Of a stretch of 64,000 bases of DNA, positions 36,667-38,968 are shown one piece after another. Below the pieces are notes generated by a model. That model saw only the letters and a list, made by a program, of their open reading frames with translations, was not told the DNA's origin and ran no database searches. Location of the stretch: NCBI GenBank assembly GCA_015232395.1, contig JADFZT010000021.1, positions 1 to 64,000 on the forward strand, read 5' to 3'. Position 1 is the first letter of the stretch. Each line of letters opens with the position of its first letter. This DNA is from Magnetococcales bacterium (GTDB taxonomy: Bacteria > Pseudomonadota > Magnetococcia > Magnetococcales > JADFZT01). The translations under genes and the position numbers were made by a program.

Positions 36667-36854
36667 TCTTTGGAGAGAATAAAGGTGGGGCGTGAAGAGG
36701 GCCTCGCTGGCGTCATGATGGATGCGTTCATGTCAGGTGTAGCATGTCTGGATGTTGGAGTTGTTCACATGAAACAGGGTCGGGCTTGGAAAAGAGGCCA
36801 ACCAGGCAGGAGTGGAGGGGGTGCACCCATGATGGGCCGTTTGGGAGAAGAAAC

Positions 36855-37163
36855 ATGACCGTAAACAATACCTTTATGGCATCCACCGCCTTACCCTCAA
36901 AAATCGTTAAATATGAGGGTAAGGCGGAACTCTATATCATTGAGGATCTCAATGGTCAGCATTTGGGCTATACCGGTCAAAGTGAGACGGCACGTCTCTA
37001 CTATGCCGCGCCTGGCATGCTGGAGGTGATCGAAAGAATGGCTTTTTTGTGCCAGCGTATTTCAGAGTCGGCTGTGGAGAGTGCCATTCGTCAGGAAGCG
37101 GTGGAGATCTTGGTGGAGGCCAATACAGTGCTCACTGCCGCCAGTAAAGCCAAAATTGAGTAA
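36855..37163 (+). CDS. Unknown 102-residue protein with an embedded hairpin near the start
   Basis: Starts at the ATG at 36855 (GGGAG upstream). The protein is soluble, has YIIEDLNGQHLGYTGQ and then a long helical part (VIERMAFLCQRISESAVESA and on). No family recognised. A perfect 14-bp inverted repeat lies in codons 11-24, described separately. It sits 51 bp before the Cache-CheD lipoprotein and may share its operon. Confidence 0.5.
   Translation: MTVNNTFMASTALPSKIVKYEGKAELYIIEDLNGQHLGYTGQSETARLYYAAPGMLEVIERMAFLCQRISESAVESAIRQEAVEILVEANTVLTAASKAKIE
36886..36927 (+). other. Strong hairpin within the coding start of the 102-residue protein
   Basis: CCGCCTTACCCTCA (36886-36899) and TGAGGGTAAGGCGG (36914-36927) are perfect inverted arms of 14 bp with a 14-base loop. 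No T-run follows, so it is not a terminator. Its place about 30 bases after the ATG would influence initiation or mRNA stability, or could be a protein-binding site. Inference only. Confidence 0.7.
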
Positions 37164-37214
37164 GTATCCCAATTAAATGACATCATTATTGATTCGTTTG
37201 CCCAATCAATTGGA

Positions 37215-38744
37215 GTGGTGGAAACAGTGCGTTTTATTTCTATTTTGGCTGCGGGCCTGCTTTTTTTCGGATGGCTTCTTTCAGGGTGTGTCAGTACCAC
37301 GGAAGTGGATATCCATCAAATCACTTTCGAGCGATTGGAAAAAATTCGCTCGGACAAAAAAGCCGCCATTCTTTTTGAGCTGGTGCGGTTGAGAAAGAAG
37401 GCGGATCAGGCCCCTCGGGATCCCACCCTGATGGATGAATTTTTCCGGTTGAGGGATCAAACGCCTGCCAATCATTCCCAACGTTCCAAGGCGTTGGCTG
37501 CCATCACTGCTCTGGATCAGCACTTTGTGGCAGAGTATGGAGTGTTTTACGATCTTTTGTTTATCCGCAAGGATGGCTTTGTTTTTCATTCCATCCGCAT
37601 GGAGTCGGACTTTCGCTCCAATCTGTTTCATGGGCCTCTCTCAGCGACCCATCTGGCCCGAGCCCTTCGGAAATCCCCACAACCCCGGTTTGTGGATTAT
37701 GATTATTATGGGCCTTCTGCCGAAGCAGCTGCTTTTTTTCTCAACCCCGTCCTCCACCAAAACCAGGTGGTTGGCTGGATGGCCTTGCAGCTGGATATTC
37801 ACCCCATCAATCGGATCATGACCGACTATGGGGAGCTTGGCCAAACGGGAGAGAGCTATCTGGCCAACGACCAAAACTGGATGCTCACCCAATCCCGTTT
37901 TTATCCCCATGAAACCAGCTTGCAGCAACGCATTGAAACCCGGGTGACCGAGGTGGCCCCCCAACAAAACAGCGGCCAGATGGTGATTGAAGATTATCGC
38001 CGGGTTCGGGTGTTGAGCGTGTTTGAAAAGGTGGTGTTCGAGGGGGTTTCGTGGGTTTTGATCGTTGAGATGGATGAAGATGAAATCCTCGCCGAGCAGT
38101 TTTTACAGAACCCCGATTTTTACCTGAGTAAAATTCTGGAAAAACCGGACCCTGGAGAGCCTTTGGCCGATGGGCGATTATCGGTGGGAAAGTCGCCTGT
38201 TCGGGTGGATGTCAATGAATTTGCCCGGGGCAAGCCTGGCAGGCATCTTTTGACCCGAGGGGTGGCTACCTGCACCGGGGTGGTGATCACCTATCCCGAT
38301 CAGTTCAGTTATCTGGGGCATATCTACCCCCTGGATACGGCCTACCATTCCCCTTGGAAATTACTGGTGACGGAGATGGGGCTTTGGTGGCGGGGGGTGG
38401 CGCAGCCGGGAAATACCAACGATCTTTTGGGGCTGATTTTACATCGCATCACCCAATTTGAAATTCCCAAGTCAAAAATCAGGGATCTCAAAGTGGTCTT
38501 GGTAGCGGTGCATACCGAAAGCTTCAAGGGGATTGTTCAGAGGCTTCTTGCTGAAGGGATTTATCTCTCCCAAATCACCATCCTCCACGCCCCAAAGATG
38601 CGTCACGCCAATATTGTCGTGGAGTCAGCCAACCCGGTGATTGCCGTGGAGTGGGAAGGGGAGGAGGAGGGGGCTTTGTCACGAAGCAACCGATCCAGGA
38701 ATTTGGGGGAGATGGTGACGCCATTCCTATCCCGTGGGGTATGA
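37215..38744 (+). CDS. Lipoprotein: Cache sensor domain fused to a CheD-like deamidase domain
   Basis: 509 residues from the first GTG (37227 is an alternative). A lipobox LLSGC near residue 23 predicts a lipoprotein with the rest outside the cytoplasm. Residues about 90-290 look like a dCache ligand-binding domain: RKDGFVFHS, then TGESYLANDQNWMLTQSRF, as in chemoreceptors. Residues about 330-490 resemble CheD: Thr347, Cys353 (TRGVATCTGVV) and His369 (GHIYPL), which match in order and spacing the Thr/Cys/His triad of T. maritima CheD, and the late strand NIVVESANPVIAVEWEG. CheD normally works in the cytoplasm on chemoreceptors, so a secreted version is unexpected. No chemotaxis genes are near. 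Confidence 0.6.
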   Translation: MVETVRFISILAAGLLFFGWLLSGCVSTTEVDIHQITFERLEKIRSDKKAAILFELVRLRKKADQAPRDPTLMDEFFRLRDQTPANHSQRSKALAAITALDQHFVAEYGVFYDLLFIRKDGFVFHSIRMESDFRSNLFHGPLSATHLARALRKSPQPRFVDYDYYGPSAEAAAFFLNPVLHQNQVVGWMALQLDIHPINRIMTDYGELGQTGESYLANDQNWMLTQSRFYPHETSLQQRIETRVTEVAPQQNSGQMVIEDYRRVRVLSVFEKVVFEGVSWVLIVEMDEDEILAEQFLQNPDFYLSKILEKPDPGEPLADGRLSVGKSPVRVDVNEFARGKPGRHLLTRGVATCTGVVITYPDQFSYLGHIYPLDTAYHSPWKLLVTEMGLWWRGVAQPGNTNDLLGLILHRITQFEIPKSKIRDLKVVLVAVHTESFKGIVQRLLAEGIYLSQITILHAPKMRHANIVVESANPVIAVEWEGEEEGALSRSNRSRNLGEMVTPFLSRGV

Positions 38745-38750
38745 CTCTTA

Positions 38751-38917
38751 AACCTAAATCCGGCAGTTGGGCGTGTGTGGCTGGTGCAGAATATTGGTTC
38801 GCATAGTGAATTGGGAGAAATCGCCGTCACCTTATTGGTCACAAGACTTTCTCCCGATTTGCTTGGTGGATCAAGAGGCTGGGGCATGTACGTACGCCCA
38901 ACTGCCGGATTTAGGTT
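38751..38917. repeat. Miniature element with perfect 24-bp terminal inverted repeats
   Basis: Left end AACCTAAATCCGGCAGTTGG plus GCGT at 38751-38774, right end its exact reverse complement at 38894-38917; 119 bases between. No gene inside. It begins 6 bp after the stop codon of the Cache-CheD gene. The size and ends fit a non-autonomous transposon (MITE). No second copy seen in this window. Confidence 0.8.
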
Positions 38918-38968
38918 AAAGGGCTGTCTGTTTTGGCGAAAGAGGTCCCAGAGGGTGGGTAGGGATCT

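What the first reader, a model, noticed from the sequence alone, without database searches (positions are those of the whole stretch)
37215..38744. Exported lipoprotein fusing a Cache sensor to a CheD-like domain
A lipobox, a dCache-like domain and a C-terminal Thr/Cys/His set (347/353/369) in the order and spacing of CheD. CheD deamidates chemoreceptors in the cytoplasm; a secreted version tied to a ligand sensor suggests deamidation of periplasmic or surface proteins on ligand binding. I know of no described example.
Basis: partly seen in the sequence, partly recalled or inferred. Interest (0 to 1): 0.7.

Follow-up and report, generated by a model that had tools for sequence, protein, structure and literature searches.

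The report
Exported Cache-sensor lipoprotein with CheD-like domain
A Magnetococcales bacterium encodes a predicted exported lipoprotein in which a small-molecule sensor is joined to a domain that appears to share fold and active-site residues with protein deamidases such as CheD, a combination on the outer side of the membrane that I found described nowhere; its activity, ligand and target are untested.

Summary
The ORF at 37215-38744 (more likely start GTG 37227) has a lipobox (LLSGC), an extracytoplasmic dCache domain like those of chemoreceptors in the same order, and a C-terminal domain with T347-x5-C353-x15-H369. Two full-length relatives (47% and 35% identity), both Magnetococcales, keep T, C and H; this Cys is the only one in each mature protein apart from the lipobox Cys. 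One relative lacks the lipobox but keeps an N-terminal hydrophobic segment. A low-confidence AlphaFold model of the domain, built from family members only, has as its three best PDB matches CheD (E 3.6e-4, probability 1.00), NTAN1 and CNF1: three Cys-His hydrolases of the CNF1/YfiH-like fold. By sequence the domain is not CheD: no Pfam match, profile scores at shuffled level, no CheD GG motif, no chemotaxis neighbours, wrong compartment. The genome also has two ordinary CheD genes. Best reading: an outer-membrane or periplasmic Cys amidohydrolase (deamidase-like) of the CNF1/YfiH-like class, tied to a Cache sensor. Fold and triad are fairly well supported; export is predicted; deamidation, gating and substrate are inferred. 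Novelty: new variant (architecture and compartment) of a known enzyme class. The label should become 'CheD/NTAN1/CNF1-like'.

The parts
37212..37229 (+).
   Evidence: sequence
37227..37289 (+). lipoprotein signal peptide, lipobox L22-S23-G24-C25; residue +2 is Val
   Evidence: sequence; lipobox kept in L010/L039 (LTGC), absent in L011/L040
37302..37538 (+). N-terminal helices before the sensor (residues 30-108)
   Evidence: model helices 30-68, 70-80, 87-108
37491..38066 (+). dCache-type sensor domain (residues 93-284)
   Evidence: Pfam dCache_1 E 4.7e-5, best member 2.6e-13; Foldseek to dCache structures E ~1e-7; about 25-40% identical to sensor regions in the same order, some seen to be chemoreceptors
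38193..38660 (+). CheD/NTAN1/CNF1-like Cys-hydrolase domain (residues 327-482)
   Evidence: AlphaFold model from three family members; best PDB hit 2f9z_C CheD E 3.6e-4 prob 1.00, then NTAN1 and CNF1
38253..38255 (+). Thr347, equivalent of CheD Thr21 / NTAN1 Ser69
   Evidence: invariant in family; triad in PMC7022378
38271..38273 (+). Cys353, predicted nucleophile, only Cys of the mature protein besides the lipidated one
38319..38321 (+). His369, predicted general base, on the strand next to Cys353
   Evidence: invariant; strands 353-359 and 366-372
38511..38513 (+). His433, second invariant His, by topology where CheD has GG (by-eye alignment)
   Evidence: alignment by eye

Best explanation
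The gene makes an exported, lipid-anchored protein (probably periplasm-facing, in the outer membrane) with two working parts: a dCache sensor of the kind that chemoreceptors of this order use, and a C-terminal cysteine hydrolase of the CNF1/YfiH-like fold (CheD, NTAN1, CNF1). Cys353 would attack a side-chain or N-terminal amide (Gln or Asn) of a periplasmic or surface protein, His369 would activate it, Thr347 would orient the His. Ligand binding to the Cache domain would alter access to or activity of this site. Shown: the ORF, the motif, its conservation, and the domain order. Predicted: export, lipidation, fold. Inferred: amide hydrolysis, ligand control, and the substrate, which is unknown.
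For: Lipobox and export signal; no consistent later transmembrane segment. dCache by Pfam and Foldseek. Triad invariant, densest conservation of the domain, single free Cys. Model of the domain built without any CheD sequence: top three of 350,542 PDB chains are CheD, NTAN1 and CNF1; in the viral library the second hit is annotated CheD. Strand/helix order fits the CheD/NTAN1 pattern, with Cys and His on neighbouring strands. A possible remote relative with a signal peptide and the same T-x5-C...H-x2-P-x-D signature (L124) would extend the exported lineage beyond Magnetococcales.
Against: Model confidence is low (mean pLDDT 55.6, only three sequences) and its match to CheD is TM 0.53/0.61 at rmsd 5.4. 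No sequence-level homology to CheD or NTAN1 is detectable. Only three full-length members, no conserved gene neighbourhood, so no context hint to substrate. L124 has an E-value expected about once by chance over the genomes searched. One full-length member lacks the lipobox. No evidence at all on ligand gating beyond the domain pairing.
Confidence: 0.55

Rival explanations
1. Same fold and an active cysteine hydrolase, but not a side-chain deamidase: for example an N-terminal Asn amidohydrolase, an esterase, a transglutaminase-like enzyme, or an enzyme acting on small molecules or envelope components.
For: NTAN1 is the second PDB match; family chemistry is diverse (CheD, NTAN1, CNF1, BLF1, YfiH). 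The CheD GG motif is missing and an invariant His433 appears to stand there.
Against: The characterised members with this Cys-His-Thr/Ser set named act on Gln/Asn amides.
Confidence: 0.2
2. The fold is right but the domain is a binding module, with the Cys structural or regulatory (for example redox sensing).
For: A lone exported Cys could be a redox switch; CheD itself has a binding partner, CheC (2f9z complex).
Against: Thr, Cys and His are all invariant and lie in the most conserved block of the domain; a pure binding role needs no such triad.
Confidence: 0.13
3. The fold assignment is wrong and the motif is coincidental; the C-terminal domain is an unrelated, lineage-specific module.
For: pLDDT 55.6; profile-profile score within the shuffled range (10.7 against 13.7 +/- 2.6).
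Against: The three best of 350,542 PDB chains are all of one fold class, and the viral library, searched with the same model, returns a CheD-annotated protein as second hit; the motif spacing agrees.
Confidence: 0.12

Closest known systems
CheD, chemoreceptor glutamine deamidase (PF03975; Thermotoga maritima 2f9z_C)
   Same: best fold match; Thr-x5-Cys-x15/16-His; same order of strands and helices; both tied to chemoreceptor-type modules
   Different: no sequence similarity above shuffled controls; no GG or VGG..R motifs; exported rather than cytoplasmic; fused to a Cache sensor; no che genes nearby; two ordinary CheDs exist in the same genome
NTAN1, N-terminal asparagine amidohydrolase (PF14736)
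   Same: second fold match; Ser69/Cys75/His92 spacing nearly identical to Thr347/Cys353/His369
   Different: no PF14736 match at this locus; [quoted passage not shown]
CNF1 catalytic domain
   Same: third fold match, weakly (probability 0.25)
   Different: a toxin domain with a backbone carbonyl as the third catalytic element; no sequence similarity found
dCache_1 chemoreceptors of Magnetococcales
   Same: sensor region about 25-40% identical
   Different: chemoreceptors carry transmembrane, HAMP and signalling domains instead of an exported enzyme-like domain
Giant-virus proteins A0A5B8IFF4 (ChoanoV1) and A0A2P1EL59 (Moumouvirus, annotated CheD)
   Same: fold-level match to the domain (E 2e-4 and 7e-3)
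   Different: function unknown; not compared by sequence here

Membership tests
CheD (PF03975) | match to the Pfam/HMM profile | tested here: not met
   no hit at E<=10; PF03975 search of own genome finds two other CheDs but not this gene; CheD HMM with filters off gives nothing
CheD (PF03975) | profile-profile similarity above shuffled controls | tested here: not met
   hhalign score 10.7; shuffled 13.7 +/- 2.6; with possible remote relatives added 16.2 against 12.6 +/- 2.4, maximum 20.3
CheD (PF03975) | Thr/Cys/His triad with CheD spacing (Thr21/Cys27/His44) | tested here: met
   T347/C353/H369, spacing 6 and 16 (CheD 6 and 17), invariant
CheD (PF03975) | CheD fold | tested here: met
   Foldseek E 3.6e-4, prob 1.00, TM 0.53/0.61, from a low-confidence model
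CheD (PF03975) | KxFGG and VGG..R motifs seen in the CheDs of this order | tested here: not met
   absent from all three members
CheD (PF03975) | cytoplasmic location, chemotaxis context | tested here: not met
   signal peptide/lipobox; neighbours unrelated
[quoted passage not shown]
[quoted passage not shown]
   best three PDB hits are in this class but model pLDDT is 55.6
[quoted passage not shown]
   needs biochemistry
NTAN1 (PF14736) | profile match | tested here: not met
   no hit at this locus
dCache_1 (PF02743) | profile match and fold | tested here: met
   E 4.7e-5 (below Pfam's own cut-off), best member 2.6e-13; dCache structures are best fold matches of the full model
bacterial lipoprotein | signal peptide with lipobox Cys | tested here: met
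   LLSGC; kept in one homologue, absent in the other
bacterial lipoprotein | lipidation and membrane location | not testable with these tools
   needs labelling and fractionation

The most novel reading that the evidence does not exclude
A ligand-gated, surface or periplasmic protein deamidase that edits extracytoplasmic proteins, perhaps the sensor domains of the chemoreceptors whose Cache domains its own sensor resembles: post-translational editing of receptors from outside, parallel to CheD from inside.
Probability: 0.1. Interest if true: 0.85.

Novelty: new variant of a known kind. Interest (0 to 1): 0.58.

Why it matters
The characterised deamidases of this fold that I know of act in the cytoplasm (CheD, NTAN1) or inside host cells (CNF1, BLF1). 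A version fused to a Cache sensor and kept on the outer face would mean direct sensor-to-enzyme signalling in the periplasm with no kinase and no membrane crossing. It is small and intact in three genomes, so it can be tested with purified protein.

Tried and rejected
Pfam, NCBIfam and PDB sequence searches with the protein or its C-terminal profile gave only the Cache domain or noise. HMM and profile-profile comparison with 32 Magnetococcales CheDs was negative. PF14736 (NTAN1) did not hit the locus. Phage, plasmid and viral-contig searches were empty or noise. One scan of 84,980 species for the two most conserved motifs found only the two known homologues. Loose hits within the order were read and rejected, nearly all being reading frames opposite or beside other genes. 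In other Pseudomonadota most weak hits were chance; four candidates (L124, L129, L135, L136) carry the Cys motif but their E-values are not safe over the number of genomes searched. Operon-based inference of function was dropped because neighbours are not conserved.

Full report
What is there. The ORF at 37215-38744 (+) is real and intact; GTG 37227, 11 nt after a GGAG, is a better start than GTG 37215 and leaves a compact lipoprotein signal, MRFISILAAGLLFFGWLLSG-C. T347, C353 and H369 are at the stated positions.

Relatives. A search of 60 related genomes with the whole protein returned two full-length homologues, 47% and 35% identical, with many Cache-only hits. A scan of 84,980 species genomes found the same two, both Magnetococcales metagenome-assembled genomes (JADFYX010000050, JADGBX010000001). 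A search of 299 genomes of the phylum with the C-terminal profile found only these three. The domain pair is therefore rare and scattered: three families of one order. Two members have a lipobox; the third has an N-terminal hydrophobic segment without the Cys. All three are predicted to be exported. The genes stand in unrelated neighbourhoods.

Sensor half. Pfam reports dCache_1 (E 4.7e-5, below the curated cut-off; best member 2.6e-13), and the full-length model matches dCache chemoreceptor and kinase sensor structures at E ~1e-7. In sequence it is nearest to sensor regions of proteins of the same order; those read here in full (L012, L013, L016) are chemoreceptors with the usual signalling domain.

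Catalytic half. In the three members the block 345-377 holds 16 of the 36 invariant columns of residues 320-500 (P 3e-5), including T347, T352, C353, H369 and P372; apart from the lipobox Cys, C353 is the only Cys in each protein. An AlphaFold model of the domain, made from these three sequences only so that no CheD could bias the alignment, has low confidence (pLDDT 55.6) but gives as its three best PDB matches CheD (E 3.6e-4, probability 1.00), NTAN1 (probability 0.93) and CNF1 (E 0.33, probability 0.25). These are the CNF1/YfiH-like cysteine hydrolases, in which Cys and His are strictly conserved and the third residue is Ser, Thr or a backbone carbonyl; the CheD triad is Cys27/His44/Thr21 and that of NTAN1 is Cys75/His92/Ser69 (PMC7022378; see also PMC8960835). 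Here it is C353/H369/T347, with Cys and His on two neighbouring strands. The viral structure library gives a giant-virus protein annotated CheD as its second hit. I could not read the model's coordinates, so the distance between Cys and His was not measured.

Limits. Sequence methods see no CheD: Pfam, a CheD HMM with filters off, and profile-profile alignment with shuffled controls were all negative, and the CheD GG and VGG..R motifs are missing. With three sequences the profile is thin, so this failure counts against membership in CheD more than against the shared fold. The genome has two standard CheDs elsewhere, so this gene is not the cell's CheD.

Possible wider family. Looser searches brought up L124, from a 1.4-Mb genome of another class: a protein with a signal-peptide-like N-terminus and T-K-G-x3-C-x14-H-I-S-P-L-D; and L129, L135 and L136, with partial motifs, L135 also carrying a CheD-like KIFGG. 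Their E-values are about what chance gives over the genomes searched, so they are leads only.

Mechanism. Best reading: a lipid-anchored periplasmic or surface cysteine amidohydrolase whose activity or access is set by a small molecule bound to the Cache domain. Shown: the sequence, motif, conservation and domain order. Predicted: export and fold. Inferred: chemistry, gating and substrate.

Verdict. The family label should be widened from CheD to the CheD/NTAN1/CNF1 fold class. Novelty: a new variant of a known kind of enzyme, in a new architecture and compartment.

Noticed in passing
window 38747-38921: A ~175-bp palindromic element directly after the stop codon. The genome search gave 76 matches, many of them the same element on the other strand, so roughly 40 copies; inverted terminal repeats; one long hairpin (-102.9 kcal/mol): MITE- or REP-like.
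   Followed up: partly
L135 (G845:C7), L129 (G078:C13), L136 (G756:C37): Proteins of other Pseudomonadota, without a convincing Pfam family, with a T/C motif like that of the finding; L135 also has a CheD-like KIFGG. Possible uncatalogued relatives of the CheD/NTAN1 fold.
   Followed up: partly
L124:1171-2115: A 304-314 aa protein with a signal-peptide-like N-terminus, the T-x5-C-x14-H-x2-P-x-D signature and a serine-rich tail, in a 1.4-Mb genome, no convincing Pfam family.
   Followed up: partly
BFVD A0A5B8IFF4, A0A2P1EL59, A0A6N1NPS2: Giant-virus proteins (ChoanoV1, Moumouvirus, Tupanvirus) are the top viral fold matches; one is annotated CheD, which is odd for a virus of eukaryotes.
   Followed up: no
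window 36744-37163: Small ORF (139 aa, no Pfam family) ending 51 bases upstream on the same strand, possibly co-transcribed; whether relatives have it was not searched.
   Followed up: no
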